From Desulfuromonadaceae bacterium (GTDB lineage Bacteria; Desulfobacterota; Desulfuromonadia; Geobacterales; Pseudopelobacteraceae), in contig JAQTQX010000021.1 in the NCBI GenBank assembly GCA_028712075.1, positions 1-64,000 on the forward strand: DNA of 64,000 bases, given 5' to 3'. Each line of letters starts with the position of its first letter. Position 1 is the first letter of the stretch. The translations under genes were made by a program, and so were the position numbers. Shown here piece after piece: positions 320 to 62,815 of the stretch. Under the pieces are notes generated by a model. The model searched no databases. It worked only from the letters and a program-made list of their open reading frames with translations, and was not told the origin of the DNA.

Positions 320-1084
320 ATGATAAACGGGAAAAAAATTGTTGTCGTACTTCCCGCCTACAATGCGGAAAAAACGTTGGAACTGACTTGGCGTGAATTA
401 CCTCCCGAAGTAGATGAAATGGTATTGGTTGATGACTGCAGCCGTGATGATACTGCTGAATTATCTAAGAAACTGGGAATCATTACAATTGTCCATAAAA
501 CCAATACCGGTTACGGCGGTAATCAGAAGACCTGCTACCGCACCGCGCTGGACATGGACGCGGACATAGTCGTTATGGTCCACCCCGACTACCAGTACAC
601 CCCGCGCCTGGTCACTGCAATGGCTGCCATGATCGCGTACGGTGAGTTCGACGCCGTGCTTGCCTCCCGTATCCTGGGAACCGGAGCACGTAAAGGAGGG
701 ATGCCTCTGTACAAATACATTGCCAACCGTTTTCTGACCTTGGTGGAAAACATCCTGCTCGGGCAAAAATTATCTGAATACCACACCGGCTACCGGGCGT
801 TCTCACGTGAAGTGCTGGAAAAGTTACCGCTGGACGCCAATTCGAATGATTTTGTTTTCGACAACCAGATGATCGCTCAGATGGTCTGGTTCGGCTTCCG
901 GATCGGTGAACTCTCCTGCCCCACCAAATACTTTAAGGAGGCATCCTCCATCAATTTTCGACGAAGTGTGATTTATGGCATAGGTGTCCTTGGTACAGCA
1001 TTGCTGTTCAGGCTTAATAAGTGGGGGCTGTCATCATCACCCAGATACCGGATGAGGGATGAGCAAACATCTGATGAGAGATGA
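320..1084 (+). CDS. Family 2 glycosyltransferase (DPM-like)
   Basis: A 254-residue cytoplasmic GT-A enzyme expected to transfer a sugar from a nucleotide sugar to a lipid or glycan acceptor. The nucleotide-binding start ([13 protein letters not shown], about residues 8-20), the [10 protein letters not shown] motif (about 37-46) and the conserved [10 protein letters not shown] segment (about 156) are visible. The metal-binding DxD position reads VHPDYQY, a variant I know from the DPM1-like branch. No transmembrane tail is present. The start follows a weak ribosome site. The last residues ([11 protein letters not shown]) and the stop codon are encoded by the heptad repeat array that begins at 1051, so the native C-terminus was probably shorter or different. 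The donor and acceptor sugars are unknown. Confidence 0.85.
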
Positions 1085-1162
1085 GAGATGAGGTTGAAGG
1101 TTTTTCTCATCCCTCATCAGACACTGACTCATCGTTTCTAACTCATCTCTCATCGTTTTTTT
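1051..1162. repeat. Heptad inverted array 1
   Basis: A left arm of GATGAGG/GATGAGA units (1051-1092) is followed by a loop and a right arm of CTCATCC/CTCATCT units (1106-1155) ending in a run of T. The segment around 1071-1085 can pair with 1106-1120. It encodes the tail and stop of the upstream glycosyltransferase. Confidence 0.9.
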
Positions 1163-37484: not shown

Positions 37485-38638
37485 AAATGTGCCTGATTGC
37501 GCCGATTCCCCCGTTCAGAGGCGGGATCGCCAAATATTGTTATTCTCTTGCACAGGAACTGGAGAAACGGCATGACCTGCTCCTTTTAAGCTACCGACGC
37601 CAGTACCCTGAACTGCTGTACGGCAGGAAGAGCCAGATTGACCCGGAAGTGGACAAGGCGCGGATACAGAGAGAATTTTGCAACCTCTCCTACGACATTG
37701 ACTCGATGAGCATCTTTTCCTGGGTTGCCACGGCAACGCGCATTGTCTCCTTTGCCCCTGATCTGGTGATATTCCCCTGGTGGGTTACCTACTGGGCTCC
37801 GATGTACGCTTATCTACTGGCAATACTGCATAAGAAGGAGATCAAGGTCGTTTTTCTCTGCATTAACATTTTCGAACACGAAGATAATGCTCTCAAAAAA
37901 ATGGCGACACGATTCATCCTCAGAAGAGCCAATACCATCATTGTTCATTCGGAACTGGAAAAAGAGACCGCCCGGGAAATAAACCCTGCAGCTACCGTGA
38001 TTAAACATCTGCTGCCGTTGTTCGTGTACGACACGTGTGACACATACACTGTACGCCCTGACAATAAGGGGCTCCGGCTGTTGTTTTTCGGATTTGTCCG
38101 ACCGTACAAGGGGCTTGACGTCCTGCTGAAGGCTGTCGCTTTGCTGAAGGATCAGGATATTTCTCTAAAGATTGCAGGGGAGTTCTGGAACGAAACGGAT
38201 GAATACAACGCCATAATCACCGAAGGCGGTATTTCTGACAAGGTTGAAATCATCAACCGGTTTGTTCCGGATCAGGAGATGAGTTCCTGTTTTGCCTCGG
38301 CAGATCTGGTTGTCCTGCCATACCGGAAATCGATCACCTCCGGTATAATTGCGACCGCCTACGGATTCAAAAAGCCTGTTCTCGCAACACATGTGGGGGG
38401 ATTTCATGAGGTCATACAGGATGGCCTCACCGGAAAGCTTGTTCCGCCGGATGATCCTGAAGCTTTTGCCGAAGGAATTTTATGGTTTATGGCCCATCAG
38501 GAGATAGATTTTGCGGAAAACATTGCATCATTTACGGCACGGGAAATGTCATGGAACTCTCTGGCAGGTACATTGGAAGGCACGATGAGAGATGAGTTAG
38601 AATCGATGAGCGATAAACCGATGAGGGATGAGGGATGA
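37481..38638 (+). CDS. Family 4 glycosyltransferase
   Basis: 385 residues. The N-terminal glycine-rich loop is PIPPFRGGIAKYC and the GT-B donor domain has LFFGFVRPYKGLDVLL and VLPYRKSITSGIIATAYGF. The last block holds Ser/Gly where the first conserved Glu usually sits, a known variant of this family. The final residues (MRDELESMSDKPMRDEG) and the stop come from heptad array 3, so about 17 residues have been added to, or have replaced, the native tail. Confidence 0.9.
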   Translation: MKMCLIAPIPPFRGGIAKYCYSLAQELEKRHDLLLLSYRRQYPELLYGRKSQIDPEVDKARIQREFCNLSYDIDSMSIFSWVATATRIVSFAPDLVIFPWWVTYWAPMYAYLLAILHKKEIKVVFLCINIFEHEDNALKKMATRFILRRANTIIVHSELEKETAREINPAATVIKHLLPLFVYDTCDTYTVRPDNKGLRLLFFGFVRPYKGLDVLLKAVALLKDQDISLKIAGEFWNETDEYNAIITEGGISDKVEIINRFVPDQEMSSCFASADLVVLPYRKSITSGIIATAYGFKKPVLATHVGGFHEVIQDGLTGKLVPPDDPEAFAEGILWFMAHQEIDFAENIASFTAREMSWNSLAGTLEGTMRDELESMSDKPMRDEG

Positions 38639-38714
38639 GGGATGAGGGATGAGGGATGAGGAAAGGCCAGCTTCTCACTCATCTCTCATCGGTTTCGCTC
38701 ATCTCTCATCGGTT
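38583..38714. repeat. Heptad inverted array 3
   Basis: A left arm of GATGAG units, including about six perfect tandem GATGAGG copies (to about 38660), a short spacer, and a right arm of CTCATC units. The arms are complementary over much of their length. It lies between convergent genes and encodes the tail of the GT4 at 37481. Confidence 0.92.
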
Positions 38715-42628: not shown

Positions 42629-42771
42629 TGATGAGGGATGAGGGATGAGGGATGAAAGAGGTTTTCTCATCCCTCATCGGTTCTCCCTCATCGGTTCTCA
42701 CTCATCGGTTCTCACTCATCGGTTCTCACTCATCGGTTCTCGCTCATCGGTTCTCACTCATCCCTCATCGT
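42629..42771. repeat. Heptad inverted array 5 with 14-bp repeats
   Basis: Left arm: about four GATGAGG units. Right arm: CTCATCC units grade into a 14-bp compound unit (CTCATCGGTTCTCA) repeated about six times. It sits between convergent genes. Confidence 0.9.
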
Positions 42772-42774
42772 TAT

Positions 42775-44241
42775 TCAGTAGCTTTTGAAATCATCCGTCG
42801 TGAAATGCATCGGCATGCCCGAGCTGGAGAAGTCAAAATGCTCGCCATGATCTTTCATCATCAGCTTGAATGCACTGAGCATATAGCGCCTCTTGAATCC
42901 ATCTTCCAGTGCCACGATTTCCTGTACTTTTTCACTGTAAAATTTCATATAGCAGGTGCCGAGTGCCTGTGTAATTTCGTCCATGGTCATCTCAAGCGGT
43001 TCCACAATCGGTGTTACCAGATTGTATTTTGAATAGTCCCACACCCGGATACGATCTTTCATGTCCGCGTGAATCGGCGTAAACGGCATCGGCGTCACCA
43101 CCGGAAACACGGCAATATCAGGGTTGAGATACTTGGCTGATTCGATGGTGCTCTCAATGGAATCCCAGGTTTCGTTGGGGAAGCCGATCATGAACGACGC
43201 TTCCGTAATGATGCCGTTCTCGCGGCAGAGATCAAGCGCCTGCTTGTTCTGCTCGAAACTGGTGCCTTTGTTGAGGCTGTTCAGGGTGTCCTTGTCGGCA
43301 CTCTCCGCCCCGATGTAAATATGGATGATACCGGCATCCCGGTATTTATGCAGGATATCGGCATCCCTGATGATATCCTCAACTCGCGTCTCGATAAGGA
43401 GATATACCCCGAAGTTCTTTTCTATCATAAGATCAAGGAACAGCTCCCACCGGTCCCGATGCTTGGTCGGATAGGCATCAATCAGCGTAAAGAAGTTAAT
43501 ACCGTAGGTCTTGATCAGGTCCTCCATCTCGACAATGACATTTTCCGGCTTGCGGCAGCGCCAGTCTTCACGCCAGAACATCCTCTGGCTGCAGAATGCA
43601 CAGGCCATATCACAGCCGCGTGAAGTCAGAATGGACGCCATTCTGCCGCCGGGTGCAACGCGGTACTGGTAGTCATCCCAGTCCAGCAGATGCCACGCCG
43701 GTTTCAGTGAGTCCAGTTCGGAAATATGGGGTTGCTTGTCATTTGCGACAACCTTCGCGCCATCCCGATAGACGACCCCTTTGACGCTTTTACCGTTACC
43801 TTCGGGAATCGCAGTCAGAAGCTGTTTCAGAGTCTGCTCCGGCTCCCCCATCAAAATATAATCGACATGGTTTTTGTCGTCTTCAAGGATTTCGTTATAC
43901 ATGAAGGTAGGGTGCGGCCCACCCAGCAAGGTGATGATGGCCGGGTTCACCTCTTTCGTCACATCCAGTATCTTCAGCGCATCGGGTACCGTGGCGGTGC
44001 TGATAGCACCGGTGACGGGAAGATAATCCAGGGTCATGACATAATCAGGCTGGTAGCGTTCAATCTCCTTCCTGATATCATCAAAATTGAGGTCTTTGTT
44101 CATGGCATCAAAAATTCTGGCTTCATGTCCCGCTTCAAGAGCAGCTCCGGCAAGATAGGCCAGGTGAAGAGGAGGCCATTTTCCGACAACCTGTACTCCC
44201 CAGCAGTGGTATGGTGCGGTTACAAAAAGAATCTTGCTCAT
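42775..44241 (-). CDS. B12-binding radical SAM protein (BchE-like)
   Basis: 488 residues. The N-terminal cobalamin-binding domain has LAYLAGAALEAGHEARIFD and LLGGPHPTFM (about 104-113). The radical SAM motif is SRGCDMACAFCSQ near residue 210, followed by the IDAYPTKHRDR region, IYIGAESADKDTLNSLNKG and FMIGFPNETWDS. A clear ribosome site (CAGGAGACACCG) precedes the ATG. The class includes anaerobic cyclases and methylases. Its place at the end of the cytochrome-maturation block could mean a role in haem or lipid modification, but this is inference. Confidence 0.88.
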   Translation of the reverse strand: MSKILFVTAPYHCWGVQVVGKWPPLHLAYLAGAALEAGHEARIFDAMNKDLNFDDIRKEIERYQPDYVMTLDYLPVTGAISTATVPDALKILDVTKEVNPAIITLLGGPHPTFMYNEILEDDKNHVDYILMGEPEQTLKQLLTAIPEGNGKSVKGVVYRDGAKVVANDKQPHISELDSLKPAWHLLDWDDYQYRVAPGGRMASILTSRGCDMACAFCSQRMFWREDWRCRKPENVIVEMEDLIKTYGINFFTLIDAYPTKHRDRWELFLDLMIEKNFGVYLLIETRVEDIIRDADILHKYRDAGIIHIYIGAESADKDTLNSLNKGTSFEQNKQALDLCRENGIITEASFMIGFPNETWDSIESTIESAKYLNPDIAVFPVVTPMPFTPIHADMKDRIRVWDYSKYNLVTPIVEPLEMTMDEITQALGTCYMKFYSEKVQEIVALEDGFKRRYMLSAFKLMMKDHGEHFDFSSSGMPMHFTTDDFKSY

Positions 44242-44263
44242 CGGTGTCTCCTGTTAATAAAAA

Positions 44264-44340
44264 AGGTTGAAGGTTGAGGGTTGAGGGTTGAAAGCTGGGG
44301 GATTTTCTCATCTCTCATCGTTTCTCACTCATCACTCAAC
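44264..44340. repeat. Heptad inverted array 6
   Basis: Left arm GTTGAAG/GTTGAGG units, right arm CTCATCT/CTCATCG units. It lies just upstream of the B12 radical SAM gene. A further short C-rich piece (CCCTCAACCCTCAACC) is at 44417-44432, next to the stop of the following gene. Confidence 0.85.
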
Positions 44341-44441
44341 AGCTTTCATGCTGCCACACTAGCAGAGAAAGGTAAGGTTGGAATAATGATTATGTAAAGA
44401 TTTGGTAAAGAAACACCCTCAACCCTCAACCTTCTCCACAG

Positions 44442-47343: not shown

Positions 47344-47483
47344 CGATGAGCGTTGAGCTGGACCCGATGAGAGTTGAGCTGGAACCGATGAGAGTTGAGC
47401 TGGAACCGATGAGAGTTGAGAGAAAAACCTTGGTGAGAAAAGATTTTTTCATCCCTCACCCCTCATCCCTCATCCCTCATCAG
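47344..47483. repeat. Heptad inverted array 7 with 21-bp repeats
   Basis: The left arm is built from a 21-bp compound unit (GAACCGATGAGAGTTGAGCTG) repeated three times. The right arm has CTCATCC units. The array encodes the end (KTDEG) and stop of the ABC ATPase gene on the minus strand and precedes the TTTAAAAAGGAT start region of the DUF2318 gene. Confidence 0.9.
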
Positions 47484-48179: not shown

Positions 48180-48252
48180 GATGAGGGATGAGGGATGAAA
48201 AAATCTATCCAACTCATCTCTCATCGGATTTATCTCATCTCTCATCAGATTT
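48180..48252. repeat. Heptad inverted array 8
   Basis: GATGAGG units, a short spacer, then CTCATCT/CTCATCG units. It lies between the permease gene and the ATPase gene. Confidence 0.9.
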
Positions 48253-49427: not shown

Positions 49428-49597
49428 GTGAGGGTTGAGGGTTGAGGGATGAGAAAACCTCTCAGAAACCAATGGGGGATAAGCGCTGAGAGACCAAAAA
49501 CCCTCACAGTATTTATTTTTTCATCTCTCATCTCTCAACTCTCAACATGTTTTTTTCATCTCTCAACTCTCATCATTTTTTTATCCTTCATCATCCT
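49428..49597. repeat. Heptad inverted array 9
   Basis: Left arm GTTGAGG/GATGAG units (49428-49453). A longer spacer is followed by a right arm of CTCATCT and CTCAACT units with T-rich breaks (49520-49597), which touches the end of the second permease gene. Confidence 0.85.
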
Positions 49598-50829: not shown

Positions 50830-50893
50830 CGATGAGAGATGAGAGAGGAGAGATGAGCAAACATCAGATGAACGATGAAAGTTGAGCGATAAG
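50830..50893. repeat. Heptad array 10 (left arm of S23 unit 1)
   Basis: GATGAGA and related units on the plus strand. Together with array 11 (51285-51311, CTCATCC units) it brackets the first S23 gene as inverted arms. Confidence 0.88.
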
Positions 50894-50914
50894 GGAACGA
50901 AAATCTAAATTTCA

Positions 50915-51289
50915 TCATCTCGGCTCCGCCTTTGTTTGAGCTGAACGAAATGCAGACAGCTTACCTGACAGGGTGTCAATTTTACGCGCTATTTGCAAAT
51001 ATTCATTTTCATCCATAAACCCAAGGTCACATGCAATTTCTATTTGACACGCAACTTCCATCAGTGAACCGTATGCCAACTGGGTAAAATGAGCCTGATC
51101 TTTACGACTGGTTCTGCCGCTACCTTCAGCAATGTTCGACGCAACCGAAACGGCAGCGCGATTAAGTTGGGAAACCAATCCAAACTTTTCCTCAACAGGA
51201 AAACATCCGGTAATTCTGTACACTTCAATAACGAGGTCTTTCGCCAAATACCAAACCTGTAATTTGTGATAGGTAAAGGATATTTTCAT
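50915..51289 (-). CDS. S23-type four-helix-bundle protein 1
   Basis: 124 residues: YHKLQVWYLAKDLVIEVY, EKFGLVSQLNRAAVSVASNI, AEGSGRTSRKDQAHFTQLAY and GSLMEVACQIEIA, the full signature of the 23S rRNA intervening-sequence protein family. Relatives form small helical oligomers, are found in rRNA insertions and scattered loci, and include the Avd proteins of diversity-generating retroelements. The ATG lies inside a heptad unit (GGGATGAAAA). It interrupts a cytochrome/metal operon, and a close paralog at 55425 does the same. The role is unknown; nucleic-acid binding is likely by family. Confidence 0.9.
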   Translation of the reverse strand: MKISFTYHKLQVWYLAKDLVIEVYRITGCFPVEEKFGLVSQLNRAAVSVASNIAEGSGRTSRKDQAHFTQLAYGSLMEVACQIEIACDLGFMDENEYLQIARKIDTLSGKLSAFRSAQTKAEPR

Positions 51290-51311
51290 CCCTCATCCCT
51301 CATCCCTCGTC
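51285..51311. repeat. Heptad array 11 (right arm of S23 unit 1)
   Basis: Three to four CTCATCC units. It provides the start codon of the S23 gene on the minus strand and the last codons and stop (TRDEG) of the 4-TM protein gene. Confidence 0.9.
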
Positions 51312-51730
51312 AGCTCTTCACGCATTTCCACCGGCAGTGATTCCTTGAGCAGCTCAACTTTTTTCTGCATATTCCGCCACGCATATACACCCCAGACCAC
51401 CGCCGCAAACATCATGACATGCTTCACAGCCAGAGCCGGCACCTGCAGCTTGTCGGCGGCATTGGCCCATTCGAAGCTGGTATAGAAGATGGTGCGCGGC
51501 ACGCCGCCAAGGACAACCCACCAGAGGGCGAACTTGAACAGCTTCTTCATTTTGCTGTTTGTTTTCAGGAAGAAGAGCGTTGCCTCCGGGCTGTTCATGG
51601 ATGCCTGTATGCGGATGATCGCATGCAGGGCAAAACCGCTGCCGACCAGCAGTCCGGTGGCCATGTCGTGGAAATAGTTGTTCATCATAATTACAACCCC
51701 GAGTCCGGGGCTTATGTCAAAAGTCGGCAT
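51293..51730 (-). CDS. Four-TM membrane protein, possible haem-binding
   Basis: 145 residues with three or four membrane segments. Histidines sit at membrane positions (NNYFHDMATGLLVG, GFALHAI, VKHVMMFAAVVWG), a pattern compatible with b-type haem or metal binding, though I do not recognise the family. A good ribosome site (AAAAAAGGAT) precedes the ATG. The end (ELTRDEG) comes from array 11. It lies between the WG-repeat lipoprotein and the ABC permeases in gene order. Confidence 0.6.
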   Translation of the reverse strand: MPTFDISPGLGVVIMMNNYFHDMATGLLVGSGFALHAIIRIQASMNSPEATLFFLKTNSKMKKLFKFALWWVVLGGVPRTIFYTSFEWANAADKLQVPALAVKHVMMFAAVVWGVYAWRNMQKKVELLKESLPVEMREELTRDEG

Positions 51731-51753
51731 GTTACATATCCTTTTTTAAAACT

Positions 51754-51838
51754 TGATGAGGGATGAGCTGGAACCGATGAAGGATGAGAAAATCTCTCAC
51801 ACCTCTCATCGCTTCTAACTCATCGCTTCTGACTCACC
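51754..51838. repeat. Heptad inverted array 12
   Basis: GATGAGG and GATGAG units, an AAAATCT spacer, then CTCATCG-type units. It lies between the WG lipoprotein gene and the 4-TM gene, next to a TTTTAAAAAAGGAT ribosome-site block. Confidence 0.88.
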
Positions 51839-51842
51839 GCCA

Positions 51843-52916
51843 CTACTGCTTATTTGCCACAAAATGCGTATTGAAGTGAGTGTACTGATCAATTGAACGC
51901 TGGTCCCACTCAAAACGGGCCTCAATAACCATTTTCCCGGTCTTGTCGATGAGGCCGCACTTTTCTCCGACCTTTACCGGTGCGAGGCCGTTGACAAAAA
52001 TGGAACCGGCATCGAATTGCGGCTTGATAACCATGTTACCCTGTTTGTCCATATAACCGACCTTACCCTTTACCATTATCGGAGCTAGTCCTTCGGTGAA
52101 GATGGTCGGAGAACCGAATTCCTGATTAATGATCGGATTTCCGGTCCGGTCGATCAATTGCCAGGTATCTTTTTTTCTGACAGCTGCAACTCCGTCGTTA
52201 AAATTGGTCCCCTCACTGTACTGGGCGGGTACTACCATGGTGCCGCTCTTGTCGATATAACCAACCATACCGAATTTGCCGTTAATTTTTACCATTGCAA
52301 GCCCATCACGAAACAGGGCTGCCTGGAAGAACTGCTCCGGAACAACCATTTTGCCGCTCTTGTCAATATAGCCAAACTTGGTGCCGATTTTAACGGGAGC
52401 AAGCCCTTCAGAAAACTGGGAGGCATCATCAAACTGCGGCTTGATGACAAATTTACCCTTATTATCAATAAATCCGGCCTTGAAGGTGCTGCCCTGGGAT
52501 ACAACAACCGCAGCCAGACCGTCCATGAAGGCAAATGTGGCAAGATAGTCAGCATCAATAACCTGCTTTCCTGTCTGGTCAATGTACCCCCACTTGTCCC
52601 CTTTCCGTACCGGTGCCCTGCCATTCAGGAAAATGGATGCACTATCAAAACTGGCAGGAATGACCATTTTCCCTTCCGCATCTATATAGCCATCCTTGCC
52701 GTTGACTCGCACCGGCGCAAGCCCCTCGGAAAAGATTGAAGCATAATCAAACTGTGGCGGGATAACCGTCGTACCACCTCGATCGCAATAGCCGTACTTG
52801 CCGTTAAACTTCACCAGGAATCGATCTGCGGTGTCACGCACGACCTTTTTTTCTTCCTTCTGACAGGCGGTGCAGACCGTAAGGGCTGCCAGTAATAGAA
52901 TCAGTAAGCGTCTCAT
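51843..52916 (-). CDS. WG-repeat lipoprotein
   Basis: About 357 residues from the ATG at 52916 (GGGGG upstream); an ATG at 52928 is less likely. A lipoprotein signal with lipobox LTVCTAC gives an acylated Cys near residue 18. Nine repeats of about 30-40 residues follow, each with the core GYIDKSGKMVVP or a variant (WG-repeat family), and a short unique tail. These repeats build beta structures used for binding in the envelope. It lies next to ResB and may help present or protect a partner there. Confidence 0.88.
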   Translation of the reverse strand: MRRLLILLLAALTVCTACQKEEKKVVRDTADRFLVKFNGKYGYCDRGGTTVIPPQFDYASIFSEGLAPVRVNGKDGYIDAEGKMVIPASFDSASIFLNGRAPVRKGDKWGYIDQTGKQVIDADYLATFAFMDGLAAVVVSQGSTFKAGFIDNKGKFVIKPQFDDASQFSEGLAPVKIGTKFGYIDKSGKMVVPEQFFQAALFRDGLAMVKINGKFGMVGYIDKSGTMVVPAQYSEGTNFNDGVAAVRKKDTWQLIDRTGNPIINQEFGSPTIFTEGLAPIMVKGKVGYMDKQGNMVIKPQFDAGSIFVNGLAPVKVGEKCGLIDKTGKMVIEARFEWDQRSIDQYTHFNTHFVANKQ

Positions 52917-52934
52917 TTTAACCCCCATAAATTC

Positions 52935-54436
<1,502 letters not shown>

Positions 54437-54449
54437 ATATGTATAGAAC

Positions 54450-54521
54450 CGTTGAGGGCTGAGTGATGAGAGTTGAGTGATCAGAGAGATTTTCTCAACC
54501 CTCATCTCTCAACTCTCAACT
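54450..54521. repeat. Heptad inverted array 14
   Basis: GTTGAGG and GATGAG-type units, then CTCAACC/CTCATCT/CTCAACT units. It lies between the CcsA and ResB genes. Confidence 0.88.
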
Positions 54522-54528
54522 GTTTTGT

Positions 54529-55365
54529 TTATCTCACCTGAAACACATGCAGGCTGGTATTGACGACAAGATTGACGCCGAAGAAGCAGATTATAACACT
54601 GCTCAGAGCACAGATTGCCATCCAGGCCAGACGCTTCTCACGCCAGCCGAAAGTCACCCGCAGGTGAATGGTGATCCCGTATATGAGCCAGGAGATAAGA
54701 GACCAGGTTTCGACCGGGTCCCAGGCCCAGTAACTCCCCCAGAGATCTTTCGCCCAGATTGCTCCGGCCGAGATCATAATGGTGTCGGTAATGAAGCCAA
54801 AGACGACATAGCGGAAGATTAATTCATCAAGACGGCCGATCGAAGGGAAACGCTCATACGCCGGGTTCGGTTCGGCGCTCGCTTCACTCTTCTGTTTCAG
54901 CAGGAACAGCACCCCCGCCGCCATGGCAAGGGAATATGCACCGAAGGAAAGCCAGGCAAAATAGACATGGATATACAGCCAGACCGTCTTGAGACTGGCC
55001 GCCATAGGGGTCAGACCCGGATTCTGCATATACCCGTAACCGAGCATGACGAGCACCAGGGGAACGGTACCGACGGCCAACCCCTGCAGCTGTTTGTTCT
55101 GCCAGCCGACAAACAGGGTACCGATAATTATAAACCAGCCCCCCATCAAGGCATATTCATAATGCCCCGACCAGGGGAGATGGCCAGTGGCATTGAATCG
55201 GGCAACGATAGCCGCAGTTTGGGCGACAAACCCGAAGGCAACCATAAGCGTCACCTTCGAAACAATCCGGGGGTTTTTAAAAACAAACGAGTAGATAAAG
55301 CCGACCGCGGCAAGTGCGTACGCTACCAATGATATAAGATAAAAAACTGTTTCCCAGTAAGCCAT
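54529..55365 (-). CDS. ccsA: Cytochrome c assembly protein CcsA
   Basis: 278 residues with about eight membrane segments. The haem-handling WWD-type motif is clear: LWGSYWAWDPVETWSLISWL near residues 206-225. Conserved histidines flank it (GHYEYALM, IHVYFAWL, IHLRVTFGW). It should present haem at the outer face of the membrane to apocytochromes with ResB. The ribosome site GAGAGG lies within the end of array 15. Confidence 0.94.
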   Translation of the reverse strand: MAYWETVFYLISLVAYALAAVGFIYSFVFKNPRIVSKVTLMVAFGFVAQTAAIVARFNATGHLPWSGHYEYALMGGWFIIIGTLFVGWQNKQLQGLAVGTVPLVLVMLGYGYMQNPGLTPMAASLKTVWLYIHVYFAWLSFGAYSLAMAAGVLFLLKQKSEASAEPNPAYERFPSIGRLDELIFRYVVFGFITDTIMISAGAIWAKDLWGSYWAWDPVETWSLISWLIYGITIHLRVTFGWREKRLAWMAICALSSVIICFFGVNLVVNTSLHVFQVR

Positions 55366-55376
55366 TCTAACCTCTC

Positions 55377-55426
55377 GTTGAGGGATGAGCTAAAAACGAT
55401 GAGGGATGAGAAACCCATCTCGCATC
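55377..55426. repeat. Heptad array 15 (left arm of S23 unit 2)
   Basis: GATGAGG-type units on the plus strand, then a short degenerate CTCGCATC. It forms the left arm around the second S23 gene. Confidence 0.85.
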
Positions 55427-55811
55427 ATTCTATTTCATTTCTCGCTATCATTTTTAATTGAGAACTGCGTAATGCGGACAATTTTTCAGCAAGTGAGTTT
55501 ACTTTTATATATGTTTCATTCAAGTCACTATCGGTAACAAAACCAAGATCAGAGGCAATTTCTAACTGACAAGCAACTTCCATGAGGGAGCCATACGCAA
55601 GCTGCGTGAAATGGGCCTGATCTTTACGGCTAGTCCTGCCAGCTCCTTCGGCAATATTTGATGCTACTGAAACTGCCGCTCGGGTAATCTGAGAAACCAA
55701 CCCGAACTTTTCTTCTGCAGGAAACTTTTTCGTAACACCATATACATCTATAACAATGTCCTTTGCTAAATGCCAGACCTGCAACTTATGATAAACAAAA
55801 GCCCCTCTCAT
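55425..55811 (-). CDS. S23-type four-helix-bundle protein 2
   Basis: 128 residues, closely similar to the protein encoded at 50915: YHKLQVWHLAKDIVIDVY, AAVSVASNIAEGAGRTSRKD and QAHFTQLAYGSLMEVACQ are nearly identical, and the C-terminal 35 residues have diverged. The ATG is again part of a heptad unit (GGGATGAGAGG). It separates the CcsA gene from the ResB-like gene on the same strand, so it looks inserted into a working operon. Confidence 0.9.
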   Translation of the reverse strand: MRGAFVYHKLQVWHLAKDIVIDVYGVTKKFPAEEKFGLVSQITRAAVSVASNIAEGAGRTSRKDQAHFTQLAYGSLMEVACQLEIASDLGFVTDSDLNETYIKVNSLAEKLSALRSSQLKMIARNEIE

Positions 55812-55834
55812 CCCTCATCCCTCATCCCTCATCA
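55804..55834. repeat. Heptad array 16 (right arm of S23 unit 2)
   Basis: Four CTCATCC units. They are bounded by AGCCCCT and AGGGGCT (55800-55806 and 55843-55849), a small outer inverted repeat. The array provides the start of S23 gene 2. Confidence 0.9.
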
Positions 55835-56992
55835 GTCCCTAAAGGGGCTCTTTCCAACCGCCCGCACCATGCATCCTTCATCCGCCACTTCCAGCCAGAC
55901 CCGTTGCGGACGAATTGCAACCCTCAGCAGCAGCCCGATAAGTGCAGCCGCTCCGCCAAAGATCAACAACCCTTTGTGCCTTTTGCGTACCACATGGATT
56001 TCGGACCATTGCCCCATCTTTGCGCAGGAGAGGATATAATCGCCCTGCTCAACCTGCTGGTCAACCTGGAATGTCATATCGGCAACCGTCTTGTTATCAC
56101 CGCGGCTGATTACAACCATCAGAGTGCTTTTTTCCGGTTGGTAATAGACGCCACCACCAACAAGTGCCCCCTGAAACAGTCCATAAAAACTGAACTGGCC
56201 TCGTTTCTGCACCAGCGGATCGAGCTTGACAATAGAGTCGAATACGGTAGCCCCTGAAGCAGCGGCCTTGATGACTATCTGCGGTTCAAAGACAAGTTTC
56301 GCCATAGACAGGTCATACGCGCCGACGCTGACCGGCTCCCGAGGTTTTAAAAACAACTTCCTCGGTACACCCTCCATAGAAATAAGAGATAGTTCCGTTG
56401 CTCCCATCGGATAGTCCCCATCCGGCAGGTATTGTCTGGTTATTTGCATTTTCGGCAGAGAGGAGGGAATGGAGGCCAAAGGCCCTTTGCTGATATGGCG
56501 ATATGATTCTTCCCTGTTCAGGTTGGTTGCCGGCCCCATACCATCAAGCAGCGCCCCGGAGAACTGCTGCAGATTATCCCGGATACCGACGGCCAGAAGG
56601 ACAAGCAACCCCGCGTACATAAGCGTTGTGCCGAGGTAGCCGCGCTCCTTTTTCTCAGCATAGCCACCATCAGAATCACACACAAACCCGGCCGCACTCA
56701 ACTGCGCCTCTGCCTCGGCAATCGGAACAGCGAGCATAACGCCCTGCTCAGGCTTACAGCAAGCGGCTCCATACCTGACAGACTTTCTCATTCCGGCAAG
56801 ATACCGAAGCAGGCGGCAGGCAACCAGCAGCATAAGACCGATATTGTTGACCAGCATCAGATCGGGGCCAACCAACGGTAGCTGGACATGCAGCGTTACG
56901 CTCAGGACAACAAGAACAGGAATGATAAGGAATGCAAGGAGTAACCAGGGTGAAACCAGAAGCAGCCGAAATATCTTTGACGCAACATTCAT
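55832..56992 (-). CDS. ResB-like membrane protein 2
   Basis: 386 residues. TMs near 14-33, 43-60, 122-142 and 345-362, with a large periplasmic part containing GPLASIPSSLPKMQITRQYL and FSFYGLFQGALVGGGVYY. The layout and the Pro/Gly-rich periplasmic strands resemble ResB-type proteins; the sequence is divergent. It lies directly upstream of the S23 gene and CcsA, so it is probably a third component or regulator of the maturation complex. Confidence 0.6.
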   Translation of the reverse strand: MNVASKIFRLLLVSPWLLLAFLIIPVLVVLSVTLHVQLPLVGPDLMLVNNIGLMLLVACRLLRYLAGMRKSVRYGAACCKPEQGVMLAVPIAEAEAQLSAAGFVCDSDGGYAEKKERGYLGTTLMYAGLLVLLAVGIRDNLQQFSGALLDGMGPATNLNREESYRHISKGPLASIPSSLPKMQITRQYLPDGDYPMGATELSLISMEGVPRKLFLKPREPVSVGAYDLSMAKLVFEPQIVIKAAASGATVFDSIVKLDPLVQKRGQFSFYGLFQGALVGGGVYYQPEKSTLMVVISRGDNKTVADMTFQVDQQVEQGDYILSCAKMGQWSEIHVVRKRHKGLLIFGGAAALIGLLLRVAIRPQRVWLEVADEGCMVRAVGKSPFRD

Positions 56993-57094: not shown

Positions 57095-57123
57095 CTCATC
57101 CCTCATCCCTCATCTCTCATCCC
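57095..57123. repeat. Heptad array 17 (one arm)
   Basis: CTCATCC/CTCATCT units between the DUF4019-like lipoprotein gene and the ResB-like gene. Only the C-rich arm is present. Confidence 0.85.
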
Positions 57124-57126
57124 TTT

Positions 57127-57582
57127 TCATTTTTTCCTCAGCTCATCATGCTGATTCAGTCCGGCCAGTTCCATTTTTCCATTCTTGTCACGGGTAAACG
57201 TAAGACGTATTTCGGTCTTGTAATTCTCATTCTCCAGACTATAGACCAGAATATGACCTTTATCCGGTTTCGTTTCAAAACTGACTTCTTTCGGTGTTTT
57301 AAGTACTCCCACCCGCTTCATCGTTTGCTGGAACTTCGTAACGAACGCCTGTTCACTGCCAATTTTCTTAAAACCGGCTGAAGCTTCTTTATAGATTGCG
57401 GTAAAATCACCGGCTTCCAGTTGGGCAAGTACATGGGCGGCAGCGGAACGTGCGTCAGTCTGGTTTTGCTGGGGTGCTGCACCGTTATCTACAACCGGTT
57501 TATCCTGCTTTGCATTACAGCCAATAAAGGTAACCAGAACTACAAGCATAAAGACCGTTTTGATAAGACGTAGGTAATTCAT
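57127..57582 (-). CDS. Small lipoprotein, DUF4019-like
   Basis: 151 residues with a lipoprotein signal (lipobox FIGC, Cys near residue 22). After a Gln/Asn linker comes a domain with VLAQLEAGDFTAIYKEAS, FVTKFQQTMKRVGVLK and YKTEIRLTFTRDKNGKMELAG, as in DUF4019-type proteins (a small alpha/beta domain). It is the first gene of the minus-strand maturation cluster. Its function is not known. Confidence 0.65.
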   Translation of the reverse strand: MNYLRLIKTVFMLVVLVTFIGCNAKQDKPVVDNGAAPQQNQTDARSAAAHVLAQLEAGDFTAIYKEASAGFKKIGSEQAFVTKFQQTMKRVGVLKTPKEVSFETKPDKGHILVYSLENENYKTEIRLTFTRDKNGKMELAGLNQHDELRKK

Positions 57583-58725: not shown

Positions 58726-59007
58726 ATGATACGCAGCTTCTCATCTAAAGAAACAGCAGCTATTTTCACTGGACTTGCTGTGCGTCGCCTGCCGCTTGAA
58801 ATCCAGCAGACTGCACGGCGCAAGTTAATGCAGTTGGATGCAGTGCGAATGATTGATGAATTGCGCATACCTCCAGGGAATCGATTAGAAACATTAAAAG
58901 GAAAACGTCAAGGACAATGGAGCATCAGGATAAATGATCAGTGGCGCATTTGCTTTCGTTGGGAAGATGGGTCTGCCGAAGATGTTGAAATTATTGATTA
59001 CCACTAA
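58726..59007 (+). CDS. higB: HigB/RelE-type toxin
   Basis: 93 residues: SFSSKETAAIFTG, ARRKLMQLDAV, LRIPPGNRLETLKGKRQGQW and SIRINDQWRICFRWEDG, the signature of HigB-type mRNA interferases (ribosome-dependent). The toxin gene comes first and the antitoxin follows after 12 bases, the usual order for higBA. The conserved basic/aromatic residues for RNA cutting are present. Confidence 0.93.
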   Translation: MIRSFSSKETAAIFTGLAVRRLPLEIQQTARRKLMQLDAVRMIDELRIPPGNRLETLKGKRQGQWSIRINDQWRICFRWEDGSAEDVEIIDYH

Positions 59008-59019
59008 GGGGCTATAAAC

Positions 59020-59397
59020 ATGAAAATTATTCGTAATGAGATAGAAAAAATGGACTTTACAGATGTATCGGATGGCACAAAGCTTGCCGCTGTTCATCCT
59101 GGAGAAGTGTTACTGCGAGACTTCATGGAACCGTTAGAAGTGACTCAGCACAGACTTGCGATAACGATCAGAGTACCTCCTCGCAGGATTAACGAGATCG
59201 TTCATCACAAACGCAGCATAACAACCGATACCGCATTGAGATTGGCGACGTTTTTCGGGACATCACCGGATTTCTGGACGTCTTTACAAGCATCATACGA
59301 CACAGAGCATGTCCGTAATCGTATTATAGAAGTGCTTAAAGCCATACCTCGCTATGAACCTAAATTAAAGCACGGACAACGTAGAATGGCGGCGTAA
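59020..59397 (+). CDS. higA: HigA-type antitoxin
   Basis: 125 residues; the ATG at 59050 would be a shorter alternative. The HTH (XRE-type) domain has HPGEVLLRDFMEPLEVTQHR, INEIVHHKRSITTDTALRLA and FFGTSPDFWTSLQASYD, typical of the HigA (VapI) family, which binds the toxin and represses the shared promoter. The N-terminal 15 residues are not typical and may be extra. Confidence 0.93.
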   Translation: MKIIRNEIEKMDFTDVSDGTKLAAVHPGEVLLRDFMEPLEVTQHRLAITIRVPPRRINEIVHHKRSITTDTALRLATFFGTSPDFWTSLQASYDTEHVRNRIIEVLKAIPRYEPKLKHGQRRMAA

Positions 59398-59866: not shown

Positions 59867-62815
59867 TTAGTACGTTACTGGACGGATGATCTGCTTGTTA
59901 GCTCCTGTGCCTTTAGCTGGAGTTGCAGCGTGGTCGTAGCAACCACCCCATGTTCCAACTGCATCAGGAGTTGTCAAGCCGCCATCAACTGACTGGCCTT
60001 TGATATGTGCAGCAGACTGCTCTGGTTTTAATGATGGTGGTACTGCATTTGTGTAAGGTTTCTGAACAGTACCATCGATTTCTACGAAGTTGCCGAGGGT
60101 GTAGCAACCAGCGCCAGGATTTGTTGCCGGGCTTGCTGCCTGCTGTTCCCAGTTGGTATCGTTGCTGACACCACCGGTCTGGTATGTCTGACCTGTACTG
60201 CCGTTAACGAACGCTGCTGATGCACCAGTGAAGCCACCCTGTGTACCCGGTACGTACATTACGTTACCAAGACCTGGCATGAAGCGCTCGTGCTTGGTGG
60301 TGTTGCCCATACCGTCTGTGTAGGTGTTGACTGCGGAACCGTGGATACCACCGTAGCCGTTGTCAAGACCGGAGTTGTGGCAGTTTGCACACTGGATGCC
60401 GAATACTGCGGCCATATCAGGTGCGTTTTCGCCAGTTGCCAATACTGATGGCTCGCCTTCGAGACGGTTGATGAACTTGTTAACGCCTGGCACGTATGAG
60501 GAAGTTTCTGTACCAGTTGTGTAGCCATTGAACGACAGGGTGTTACCGGAGCCGTTGCAACGTCCACCTGTTGCATATTCACCAGCGTGTGACCCATTTA
60601 CGCCAGTCTGCTGGTATGCGCTGCCATATTTCTGGAAGGCGTGGCAGTTGAAGCAGACGAGCAGGTTGTCAGTTGAGTTGATGTTGGTAACAACTTTTGC
60701 TGAACTGATTGTGTAAGTGTTCTGTGTGTGGCGTGCATCTGTACCACTGGTGTTACGCAGCATGTACTCGTTCTCTGAACCATGAGCACCGATTACGGCT
60801 GTTGTTGCAGAACCGTCAGCATTTGTTGCGGAGCCGACTTTAAACTGACCGACAGTGTGGCAGTCGCCGCAGTGGAGGGTTGAATCGTCGCCGAGTGGCA
60901 GTGAACCGGTACGGCCATTCAGAGACTGAGCTACGTTCACTTCGCCAACAGCATTCTCAAGCGGTACGTACAGCTGGTTGAATGCGACACCTTGTGGAAG
61001 ATCTTTTACACCATTATTAAAAATTGTGTTTCTTGTACCAGTGATCGGGTTAACGTTGTCATAAATAGTGGAACGTGTGCCTGGAAGATCTGTAGAAACG
61101 TTGCCCTGCAGACCGGCCACGTCCGCAATCTGACGATCACCAGCTTCTACAGTACGGCCTGTGTATCTCTTGCCTTTTACAGCGTGGTGTGATGGATTGG
61201 TTGTGTCGAACTGGCTGCTAACATTAACAACTGCCGGACGCTGCATCTTGTCGTAGCGGTTGGAGATGGTGTCACCGAACGGGTTGGTTGCGGAAGCTGT
61301 TTTGCCTGTGTTGTAAGCTCCTGCAGCAGTATTGATGAGGGCCTGAATTGCTACGCTACCTGCGGAAGTTGCGCCGTTAGCGTCATGGCAGGACATACAG
61401 AAGGTATCCATGATTGAGTGGTCAGGGCTGGCCGGTGTCCATTGTCTGTCGCTATCATTATCAGCGTCACGCAGATGGGTTGAAGAATCAGCCATATGAA
61501 TATTTGTGTCTATTACGACTGCATTGCCAACCACTTTACCTTCAAGGTGGCAAGCTGCACAGTGAGCGTCGTTAAGATCTACACCGGTTACGTGGTGTGA
61601 CCATTTGGCAAATTCAGTGGTGATGGCACGTACACCGTTGTTGTCAGCTACTTTATTAGGATGAGCCGGCAGAGCAACGTTGTGGCATTCGATACATTTT
61701 TTGGTGACCAGAGCCTGATTGTTTGGTTTAACGCTGTGAACACTGGATTTAGTGTGGCACTGAGCGCAATTCAGAGTTGCATCTCTGAGCATCGGGCGTG
61801 ACAGACCTGCGAAATCGGTATGGCAGGTAGTACAGACAGTTTCGACTTCTGCGAGCGGTTTATAAGCGTGGCTCAAATCATTGTTCGGATTGTGGCAGCC
61901 AGCACATCCTGCTCCTGCGACGTCATGAGCTGATCCTGTGAAACTAGTTTTGCTCGGTCCGCCAGAACCGTCGTGGCAACCGAGGCACGAAAATGCACCA
62001 AGAAATTCGGGTGTAATTGTTGAAGAAGTAGTGGCGGTCATGCCATCAGCAACAGCCTGAAGAGTTACGGTACAAGCGGCTTCACCTGTAGCAGGAGCGG
62101 TTACAACTCTTTTTGAGGAATCAGCACCGGCAACCTGGGCACAGGTACCACCCCAGGTATAAACTGCGTTGGTGTAACCTGGAACTGTATTGGCGATGAG
62201 GTTCAGTGTTGAACCAGGGGCTGCAGAAAGTGCGGCAGGAATGCCGATACTTGCCTGCAGAGCTTTAACTGCAGTAAATACTGGTTGAATGGTGCTGTTA
62301 GCAGTTACAGGACCAACGGTAACGGAACCGTCAACATCGCCTGTAGATACGCCGTTTACCAGAACATCAGTAAGAGTATGACCGGCGTTTGCTACAACGG
62401 TGAACGTTGCACTGTTGCCACTCCCTACTGACTGCGACCTGGAAATCCAGCCACCAGCAGCAGCAATTGATTTGACGGAAAATGTTGAGGCGGTAATCGG
62501 GGCATAATATGCCACGATGACCTGGGTCGAGTTCGGAACGCCCTGTGATACTGTGTATGGGCTGGCAGCTACTACACCATTGATTTTTACATAGGACAGC
62601 GTGTAGCCGCCCGGTGCAGTTGCAACGGTAAACACCGCCTCTGTTACGCTATCTGCAAGGCGTGTTGCTTTTCCGGTTGTCACGCCTGCAGCAGTTGCCG
62701 GGGCAGCGACGGTTAAATTGGCTGGTTGCGTGGATGCGTTGATCGACCAATCCGCAAGTGCGAATGTCGGAACAGCAGCCAAGGCCAGCATCATTACTAA
62801 AGCTTTCTTAAACAT
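59867..62815 (-). CDS. Decahaem c-type cytochrome with N-terminal beta domains
   Basis: 982 residues with a signal peptide (MFKKALVMMLALAAVPTFAL). The first 250 residues are Thr/Ser/Gly-rich repeats (VKINGVVAASPYT, DVLVNGVSTGDVDGSV), probably bacterial repeat or Ig-like domains. Ten CxxCH haem sites follow between residues about 277 and 810: CLGCH, CAGCH, CTTCH, CAQCH, CIECH, CAACH, CMSCH, CGDCH, CFNCH, CANCH. The last 170 residues contain no CxxCH. Many extra His can be distal ligands. The ribosome site is AAGGAGAG. It is probably an exported or outer-surface electron carrier, co-transcribed with the tetrahaem gene upstream. Confidence 0.93.
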   Translation of the reverse strand: MFKKALVMMLALAAVPTFALADWSINASTQPANLTVAAPATAAGVTTGKATRLADSVTEAVFTVATAPGGYTLSYVKINGVVAASPYTVSQGVPNSTQVIVAYYAPITASTFSVKSIAAAGGWISRSQSVGSGNSATFTVVANAGHTLTDVLVNGVSTGDVDGSVTVGPVTANSTIQPVFTAVKALQASIGIPAALSAAPGSTLNLIANTVPGYTNAVYTWGGTCAQVAGADSSKRVVTAPATGEAACTVTLQAVADGMTATTSSTITPEFLGAFSCLGCHDGSGGPSKTSFTGSAHDVAGAGCAGCHNPNNDLSHAYKPLAEVETVCTTCHTDFAGLSRPMLRDATLNCAQCHTKSSVHSVKPNNQALVTKKCIECHNVALPAHPNKVADNNGVRAITTEFAKWSHHVTGVDLNDAHCAACHLEGKVVGNAVVIDTNIHMADSSTHLRDADNDSDRQWTPASPDHSIMDTFCMSCHDANGATSAGSVAIQALINTAAGAYNTGKTASATNPFGDTISNRYDKMQRPAVVNVSSQFDTTNPSHHAVKGKRYTGRTVEAGDRQIADVAGLQGNVSTDLPGTRSTIYDNVNPITGTRNTIFNNGVKDLPQGVAFNQLYVPLENAVGEVNVAQSLNGRTGSLPLGDDSTLHCGDCHTVGQFKVGSATNADGSATTAVIGAHGSENEYMLRNTSGTDARHTQNTYTISSAKVVTNINSTDNLLVCFNCHAFQKYGSAYQQTGVNGSHAGEYATGGRCNGSGNTLSFNGYTTGTETSSYVPGVNKFINRLEGEPSVLATGENAPDMAAVFGIQCANCHNSGLDNGYGGIHGSAVNTYTDGMGNTTKHERFMPGLGNVMYVPGTQGGFTGASAAFVNGSTGQTYQTGGVSNDTNWEQQAASPATNPGAGCYTLGNFVEIDGTVQKPYTNAVPPSLKPEQSAAHIKGQSVDGGLTTPDAVGTWGGCYDHAATPAKGTGANKQIIRPVTY

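What the first reader, a model, noticed from the sequence alone, without database searches (positions are those of the whole stretch)
50830..55834. S23 four-helix-bundle genes carried inside the same heptad inverted arms: candidate mobile unit
Two S23-family genes (50915-51289 and 55425-55811) are each bracketed by a GATGAG arm on the left and a CTCATC arm on the right, the same geometry as the empty hairpins. Both are on the minus strand, begin within a heptad unit, and interrupt one operon. The proteins are nearly identical in the core. I infer that the S23 gene plus arms is an autonomous element and the empty hairpins are its derivatives, comparable to a transposon and its MITEs. S23 proteins are known from rRNA intervening sequences and, as Avd, from diversity-generating retroelements, so RNA or repeat binding is plausible.
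Basis: partly seen in the sequence, partly recalled or inferred. Interest (0 to 1): 0.87.

Follow-up and report, generated by a model that had tools for sequence, protein, structure and literature searches.

The report
Jumping S23 gene inside repeat arms
Two small genes of unknown function, long known only as passengers in ribosomal RNA genes, sit inside matching arms of a repeated 7-letter DNA word; comparisons with near-identical plasmids show that such gene-plus-arms units insert as whole pieces at the ends of genes, which links two old puzzles, the S23 protein and the scattered heptamer repeats of many bacteria.

Summary
Two S23 (PF05635) genes each lie between inverted arms of a GATGAGN heptad in a minus-strand operon. 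The habit is widespread: S23 genes across bacterial phyla are flanked by inverted 7-mer (sometimes 8-mer) arms in 64-73% of loci, against 9% of control ORFs. The unit sequence differs between S23 clades and is mostly shared by S23s at least 60% identical, even at unrelated sites. The unit is mobile: in cyanobacterial plasmids with 94-98% identical flanks, S23+arms is present or cleanly absent, with a 5-bp target duplication (GTAAT, TTCTA) at the upstream gene's stop codon. In the window's operon, junctions that are clean in relatives hold S23 elements or S23-less hairpins; relatives carry hairpins of other units at the same junctions. The hairpins cluster round the S23 genes. The closest known kind is the S23-encoding 23S rRNA intervening sequence; the Coxiella one also has heptamers before its S23 gene. 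Not shown: which enzyme moves it, that S23 binds the repeats, and that every empty hairpin descends from an S23 element (some genomes have many hairpins and no cognate S23). Best reading: an IVS-like S23 mobile element with MITE-like derivatives.

The parts
50831..50890 (.). distal (3') heptad arm of S23 element 1 (GATGAGA GATGAGA ... on + strand)
50915..51289 (-). S23 (four-helix-bundle) gene 1, 124 aa; its ATG lies inside a heptad
51286..51310 (.). proximal (5') heptad arm of S23 element 1 (CTCATCC)n; also supplies the stop codon of the upstream gene 51293-51730
55377..55410 (.). distal (3') heptad arm of S23 element 2
55425..55811 (-). S23 (four-helix-bundle) gene 2, 128 aa
55806..55834 (.). 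proximal (5') heptad arm of S23 element 2 (CTCATCC)n; supplies the stop codon of the ResB-like gene 55832-56992
1051..1154 (.). S23-less GATGAG hairpin
38584..38710 (.). S23-less GATGAG hairpin
42630..42769 (.). S23-less GATGAG hairpin
44237..44430 (.). S23-less heptad hairpin, degenerate
47345..47481 (.). S23-less hairpin at ABC ATPase / next-gene junction (clean overlap in several relatives; CTGAAGG hairpin in G030)
48180..48246 (.). S23-less hairpin at permease 2 / ABC ATPase junction
49434..49574 (.). S23-less hairpin at permease 1 / permease 2 junction (a few bp between stop and start in most relatives)
51755..51824 (.). S23-less hairpin at WG-repeat gene / hypothetical gene junction (clean in several relatives)
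52935..53089 (.). S23-less hairpin with long (CTCAACT)n array at ResB / WG-repeat gene junction
54451..54520 (.). S23-less hairpin at CcsB / ResB junction (CTGAAGG hairpin at the same junction in G011)
57095..57147 (.). one-sided heptad array (half hairpin)

Best explanation
The two genes are copies of a mobile element of about 460-480 bp. It consists of one S23 (four-helix-bundle) gene between inverted arms of a tandem heptad. It inserts as a unit at the end of a gene, usually on the stop codon or stop/start junction of an operon, so the neighbouring proteins survive. In the plasmid copies insertion duplicates 5 bp of target, which implies a staggered cut. Shown: the anatomy, presence/absence as a unit with 5-bp duplications (in plasmid relatives), and unit sequence tied to S23 clade. 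Inferred: the S23 protein, a homologue of a structure deposited with five chains, recognises its own repeat unit and brings the element, and S23-less hairpins that keep the arms, to an unidentified cutting and joining activity. In mRNA the arms pair and are probably cut by RNase III, as in the 23S rRNA intervening sequences (IVS) that carry the same gene. S23-less hairpins are MITE-like derivatives that have spread locally through this operon. Arms grow and shrink by whole heptads, probably by slippage.
For: 1) Exact alleles: Scytonema AP018264 and Trichormus NC_007412 carry a 409/423-bp S23 element absent from Aulosira, Tolypothrix and Nostoc linckia plasmids (flank identity 98%/94%). The empty site AAAAAGTAATTAACAAAT becomes AAAAAGTAAT|element|GTAATTAACAAAT, a 5-bp duplication holding the stop codon. 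The two occupied copies differ by two heptads. Nostoc pNsp_a: duplication TTCTA at an unrelated site, with an S23 78.5% identical and the same unit. Nostoc pNsp_c: third case, ATG. 2) Arms travel with the gene: the TCAGNAN array exists on the two occupied plasmids only in the S23 arms and on the two empty ones nowhere. 3) Arms flank 22/30 order-level and 44/69 wider S23 genes versus 14/158 control ORFs; flank autocorrelation peaks at 7, 14, 21. 4) Unit follows S23 clade: Mantel p 0.0035 with shared-flank pairs removed; 60% of pairs at 60-80% identity share at least 6/7 of the unit versus under 2% below 40% identity. Genome G041 has four S23 clades with four units. 5) Strand polarity: unit G-rich on the coding strand upstream, 62 of 67. 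6) Window sites are empty in relatives and sometimes filled by other units; G011 has a different, broken S23 with CTGAAGG arms at site 2. 7) RNA arms pair, z -2.7 and -3.0.
Against: The target duplications come from plasmid relatives; at the window's own sites the closest held relatives are too diverged to fix the ends. The third plasmid case shows only 3 bp (4 of 5 if TAATG/TTATG), and a fourth plasmid site (Calothrix) is too diverged to read. S23 has no recognisable catalytic domain, and no partner gene is conserved. About 27-36% of S23 genes fail the arm test, some at contig ends or decayed. Hairpins are abundant in genomes without a cognate S23 (G040 72 CTGAAGG hits, G051 15; G030, G033 for GATGAG), and some S23 carriers have few hairpins. 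The two window copies are 75% identical in DNA, so the insertions are old. Binding and RNase III cleavage are untested here.
Confidence: 0.78

Rival explanations
1. The heptad hairpins are host intergenic repeats that arise by slippage or serve as regulatory or processing sites. S23 is a passenger that inserts into them or binds them as a regulator, with no element as such.
For: Hairpins without S23 are common, also in genomes with no cognate S23. They sit at gene junctions. Heptad repeats have been described as putative regulator sites in Geobacter (PMC2700814).
Against: Empty plasmid sites have no heptads at all, and the arms appear only with the S23 gene. Target duplication lies outside the arms. 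Unit follows the S23 clade rather than the genome. Orthologous junctions are clean in relatives.
Confidence: 0.1
2. S23 elements are non-autonomous: they are moved in trans by a transposase or integrase encoded elsewhere, and the S23 protein does something else (element silencing, RNA chaperone, stability).
For: S23 is about 120 aa with no known nuclease or recombinase domain. A 5-bp duplication with inverted ends is typical of DDE-type integration in general (own knowledge). S23-less hairpins also occupy junctions.
Against: S23 is the only gene kept in these elements across phyla, with unit-clade linkage and low dN/dS in the few pairs where it can be estimated (0.05-0.25), so it is probably needed by the element. 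No common terminal sequence beyond the clade-specific heptads was seen.
Confidence: 0.35
3. The hairpins and S23 elements spread by an RNA route: the RNase III-cut or transcribed stem-loop is copied back into DNA at another junction of the same operon, as for mobile introns.
For: Local clustering in one transcription unit; S23 is a distant homologue of the retroelement protein Avd (weak NCBIfam match E 1.6e-4); rRNA IVS are excised as RNA (PMC4990558); the element folds as a stem-loop.
Against: No reverse transcriptase is linked to the elements. The plasmid copies lie in unrelated transcripts. Clustering is also explained by local hopping.
Confidence: 0.15
4. Ordinary vertical inheritance: the two S23 genes are old members of this operon and have simply been lost elsewhere.
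For: S23 of the same clade at site 1 in G034 and G020, and a relic in another family (G041).
Against: Site 2 is clean in 13 relatives and holds an unrelated S23 with other arms in G011; elsewhere exact presence/absence with target duplication is shown. It may still be true of site 1 alone.
Confidence: 0.12

Closest known systems
S23-encoding intervening sequences (IVS) of 23S rRNA (Coxiella burnetii, Leptospira)
   Same: One S23 ORF inside inverted ends that fold into a stem, sporadic distribution, called a selfish element; the Coxiella IVS has 2-3 tandem heptamers (GACAGAT) just before the S23 start, varying in number between strains (PMC4990558).
   Different: Here the target is a protein-gene junction, not rRNA helix 9/25/45. 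The arms are the heptads themselves, in many clade-specific versions, with target duplications and S23-less relatives. None of the S23 loci checked carried 23S rRNA words.
REP sequences / REPINs with RAYT transposases
   Same: Short inverted-repeat units scattered between genes, with one protein gene flanked by the same units (own knowledge).
   Different: RAYTs are HUH tyrosine transposases; S23 is a four-helix bundle with no such domain. REPs are not tandem heptads.
Insertion sequences and MITEs
   Same: Inverted ends, target duplication, internally deleted derivatives.
   Different: No transposase gene; ends are tandem 7-mers of variable number and variable sequence.
Cyanobacterial STRR heptamers, Xanthomonas/Nostoc GGGNATC and GGGGATT repeats, Geobacter heptamer/octamer sites, Beggiatoa TAACTGA
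   Same: Tandem, often inverted 7-mers (Geobacter also 8-mers) between genes (PMC4692102, PMC2700814, PMC4679880).
   Different: S23 is not mentioned in the Xanthomonas/Nostoc, Geobacter or Beggiatoa papers searched; in cyanobacterial plasmids such heptads form the arms of S23 elements.
Diversity-generating retroelement protein Avd
   Same: Distant sequence relative of S23.
   Different: No reverse transcriptase or variable repeat was found in these elements.

Membership tests
S23 / 23S_rRNA_IVP protein family (PF05635, TIGR02436) | profile match over the whole domain above curated cut-off | tested here: met
   117 and 120 bits against a cut-off of 33.8; TIGR02436 110 and 113 bits against 24; 2gsc_A E 3.7e-23
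23S rRNA intervening sequence (IVS) | S23 ORF within inverted ends forming a stem | tested here: met
23S rRNA intervening sequence (IVS) | located inside a 23S rRNA gene | tested here: not met
   window flanks are ccs/ABC operon genes; no Rfam rRNA match; no 23S words in S23 loci
23S rRNA intervening sequence (IVS) | excised from the transcript by RNase III | not testable with these tools
   only folding was computed
Transposable element (general) | occupied and empty alleles of one site with target duplication | tested here: met
   two exact 5-bp cases and one partial, in plasmid relatives; not resolvable at the two window sites
Insertion sequence (IS) | encodes a transposase of a known class | tested here: not met
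   only an S23 ORF between the arms
MITE-like derivative (for the empty hairpins) | internally deleted copies of the full element keeping its ends | tested here: inconclusive
   two relics with internal deletions (G041 site 1; L340) and an S23-less allele of a GGGAACA site; most hairpins carry no S23 remnant
REPIN/RAYT | associated HUH tyrosine transposase | tested here: not met
Diversity-generating retroelement | Avd above cut-off with reverse transcriptase and template/variable repeats | tested here: not met
   Avd model 22 bits against a cut-off of 80; neighbouring genes are ABC/ccs genes

The most novel reading that the evidence does not exclude
A new class of transposable element whose only protein is the S23 four-helix bundle. 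Each clade of S23 reads its own heptamer and directs insertion at gene ends with 5-bp duplications. Many of the dispersed heptamer repeats of bacteria (STRR of cyanobacteria, GGGNATC of Xanthomonas, Geobacter hairpins) are its non-autonomous progeny, and 23S rRNA IVS are one branch that landed in rRNA.
Probability: 0.42. Interest if true: 0.95.

Novelty: new variant of a known kind. Interest (0 to 1): 0.84.

Why it matters
It gives the S23/IVS protein, unexplained since the 1990s, a setting in which its role can be tested. It ties that protein to the tandem heptamer repeats seen in many bacteria, which have been read as regulatory sites or slippage products. It also makes a sharp prediction: S23 protein and heptamer are a matched pair. 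If S23 recognises short repeats by clade, it is a small, simple repeat-reading module attached to insertion at gene ends. It may also explain the reported CRISPR linkage of 23S rRNA IVP, since one such element lies between cas6 and cas4 in Anabaena.

Tried and rejected
Rfam found nothing in the operon. Exact doubled GATGAGGATGAG without spacer is at chance level: the true unit is a 7-mer. De novo hairpin scans of 400 kb in each of four relatives and of other contigs of this genome gave few true hairpins above shuffles, so this window is a hot spot, not typical of the genome. A tight genome-level link between cognate S23 and number of empty hairpins was looked for and not found. Target duplications at the window's own sites could not be fixed for lack of close relatives. 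dN/dS is mostly saturated. No S23 locus tested lay in 23S rRNA. No S23 in phage records. Paper searches found no report joining S23 to heptamer arms outside the Coxiella IVS; subscription papers are not held. XCC0516 with the Xanthomonas GGGNATC repeat would be a good test, but I could not fetch that genome.
Full report
What is there. The window holds two S23 (PF05635, TIGR02436) genes at 50915-51289 and 55425-55811, both minus strand, inside an operon of ABC-transporter and cytochrome-c-biogenesis genes on the same strand. Each lies between GATGAG-type heptads on the left and CTCATC-type heptads on the right; the start codon of each S23 gene and the stop codon of the gene before it are made of heptad bases. 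The proteins are 69% identical (54 of 59 in the core), their DNA 75%, so they are not a recent duplication. Around them nearly every non-overlapping gene junction from 42.6 to 57.1 kb carries an S23-less hairpin of the same heptad. Folded RNA z-scores run from -2.0 to -6.3 for the hairpins and are -2.7 and -3.0 for the two S23 elements, whose arms pair.

More than chance, and local. GATGAGNGATGAG occurs 128 times in the 4.15-Mb genome, the reversed-pattern control 0 times. Merged by distance (using), there are 34 clusters, 12 of them on this 75-kb contig, where 0.62 are expected (P 3e-12). In relative G034 all ten GATGAG triples lie on the 18-kb contig that carries its S23. In 400 kb sampled from other contigs of the same genome a de novo scan finds no more hairpins than in shuffled sequence.

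A general habit of S23 genes. S23 is present over the family cut-off in 42 of 58 relatives. With exact 6-mers counted at least twice upstream and, reverse-complemented, at least twice downstream within 200 bp, 22 of 30 S23 genes in the order and 44 of 69 from many phyla have arms, against 14 of 158 other ORFs in the wider loci and 0 of 3 in the order loci (P 3e-17 for the wider set). Flank autocorrelation peaks at 7, 14 and 21 with a smaller signal at 8 and 24. Against shuffled flanks, 39 of 49 and 36 of 83 loci pass at about p 0.05 each. The unit sequence differs (GATGAGG, GGGGACT, GTGAACA, GTGAGGA, CTGAAGG, TTCNAGG, GTTTAGA and others), but on the S23 coding strand the upstream unit is G-rich in 62 of 67 cases. 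The third S23 of this genome (contig C17) has 8-mer arms.

The unit follows the S23 clade. With pairs that share flanking sequence removed, protein identity and unit similarity correlate (Mantel p 0.0035). S23 pairs 60-80% identical share at least 6 of 7 unit letters in 60% of cases, against under 2% below 40% identity. One genome (G041) carries four S23 clades with four different units. So arms and gene travel together, and the unit changes faster than the protein.

Empty sites next to the window. Site 1 (hypothetical gene / FtsX permease) holds an S23 of the same clade in G034 and G020 and an internally deleted S23 relic in G041 of another family; G017, G030, G048 and others have no GATGAG heptads there. 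Site 2 (ResB-like / CcsB) is clean in 13 relatives, has partial arms in G006, and in G011 holds an unrelated, frame-broken S23 with CTGAAGG arms; G011's hairpins at the next junctions are of the CTGAAGG type too. Junctions that hold GATGAG hairpins here are overlapping or nearly so in most relatives (permease 1/2, ABC ATPase/next gene, WG/hypothetical), while G030 has a CTGAAGG hairpin and G020 a CGCAAAG-type hairpin at two of the same junctions. Repeated independent insertion at gene ends is the simplest reading.

Direct evidence of mobility. S23 genes on cyanobacterial plasmids give natural experiments. In Scytonema AP018264 and Trichormus NC_007412 a 409/423-bp element runs from AAATCAGAATTCAG to CTGACTCCTGAGTTCTTCTTT with only an S23 gene inside. 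Aulosira AP018310, Tolypothrix CP064880 and Nostoc linckia AP018224 have the bare site AAAAAGTAATTAACAAAT; the occupied site reads AAAAAGTAAT-element-GTAATTAACAAAT, a 5-bp duplication that includes the upstream stop codon. Flank identity between an occupied and an empty plasmid is 98% and 94%. The two occupied copies differ by exactly two heptads in one arm, and a Nostoc C052 plasmid has an internally deleted copy. The heptad array is absent from the empty plasmids and present in the occupied ones only as the S23 arms. In Nostoc pNsp_a an S23 78.5% identical to that one, with the same unit, sits at an unrelated site with duplication TTCTA; in pNsp_c an S23 with GGGAAAA-type arms splits a TAATG stop/start with ATG repeated. 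At a fourth site Nostoc C052 and N. edaphicum have S23 with GGGAACA arms, ATCC 53789 has an S23-less GGGAACA hairpin, and three other plasmids have neither.

What it is most likely. A mobile element built like the S23-carrying intervening sequences of 23S rRNA, but living at protein-gene junctions. The Coxiella IVS is described as a selfish element with a 28-bp stem cut by RNase III and two to three tandem heptamers (GACAGAT) before the S23 start, varying among strains (PMC4990558). That paper was found only after the heptad arms had been measured here, and its heptamers support one family. The shown steps are anatomy, unit-clade linkage, and presence/absence as a unit with target duplication. 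The inferred steps are recognition of the heptad by S23, recruitment of an unknown cutting activity, RNase III processing of the transcript, and descent of the empty hairpins from S23 elements.

Limits. The duplications were found in plasmid relatives, not at the two window sites. The enzyme is unknown. Hairpins can be numerous without a cognate S23 (G040: 72 CTGAAGG hits), so they either outlive the S23 that made them or have another source. The broad survey kept the 80 best tblastn hits to a mixed alignment and is not a random sample. The three-gene control for the order is small; the wider control has 158 ORFs.

Noticed in passing
58726-59397 (+): Adjacent plus-strand pair of small genes that looks like a RelE/HigB-type toxin and HigA-type antitoxin, judged from the ORF translations only.
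   Followed up: no
59867-62815 (-): Large protein of 982 aa with many CxxCH motifs, a probable multihaem c-type cytochrome, judged from the ORF translation only.
   Followed up: no
contig G000:C43 64191-64392, just beyond the window: GATGAG pairs repeat every 21 bp about ten times, an array of three-heptad units on one strand.
   Followed up: no
L317 (G030), L318 (G018), L314 (G020) operon junctions: A different hairpin family with CGCAAAG units occupies some of the same operon junctions; no S23 with such arms was seen.
   Followed up: partly
L335 (Anabaena sp. 90 plasmid NC_019429): An S23 gene sits between cas6 and cas4 of a type I-D CRISPR locus; this may explain the CRISPR association reported for 23S rRNA IVP in PMC10910872.
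   Followed up: partly
L192-L196: A divergent S23 clade (MKxNLIQQKSYDFALKII) whose flanks carry ATTTTGA/TTGGATT-type repeats; may deserve its own family.
   Followed up: partly
L354, L357 (Nostoc plasmids): An S23-less heptad hairpin appears to carry a second heptad hairpin inserted in its loop, a nested insertion.
   Followed up: partly
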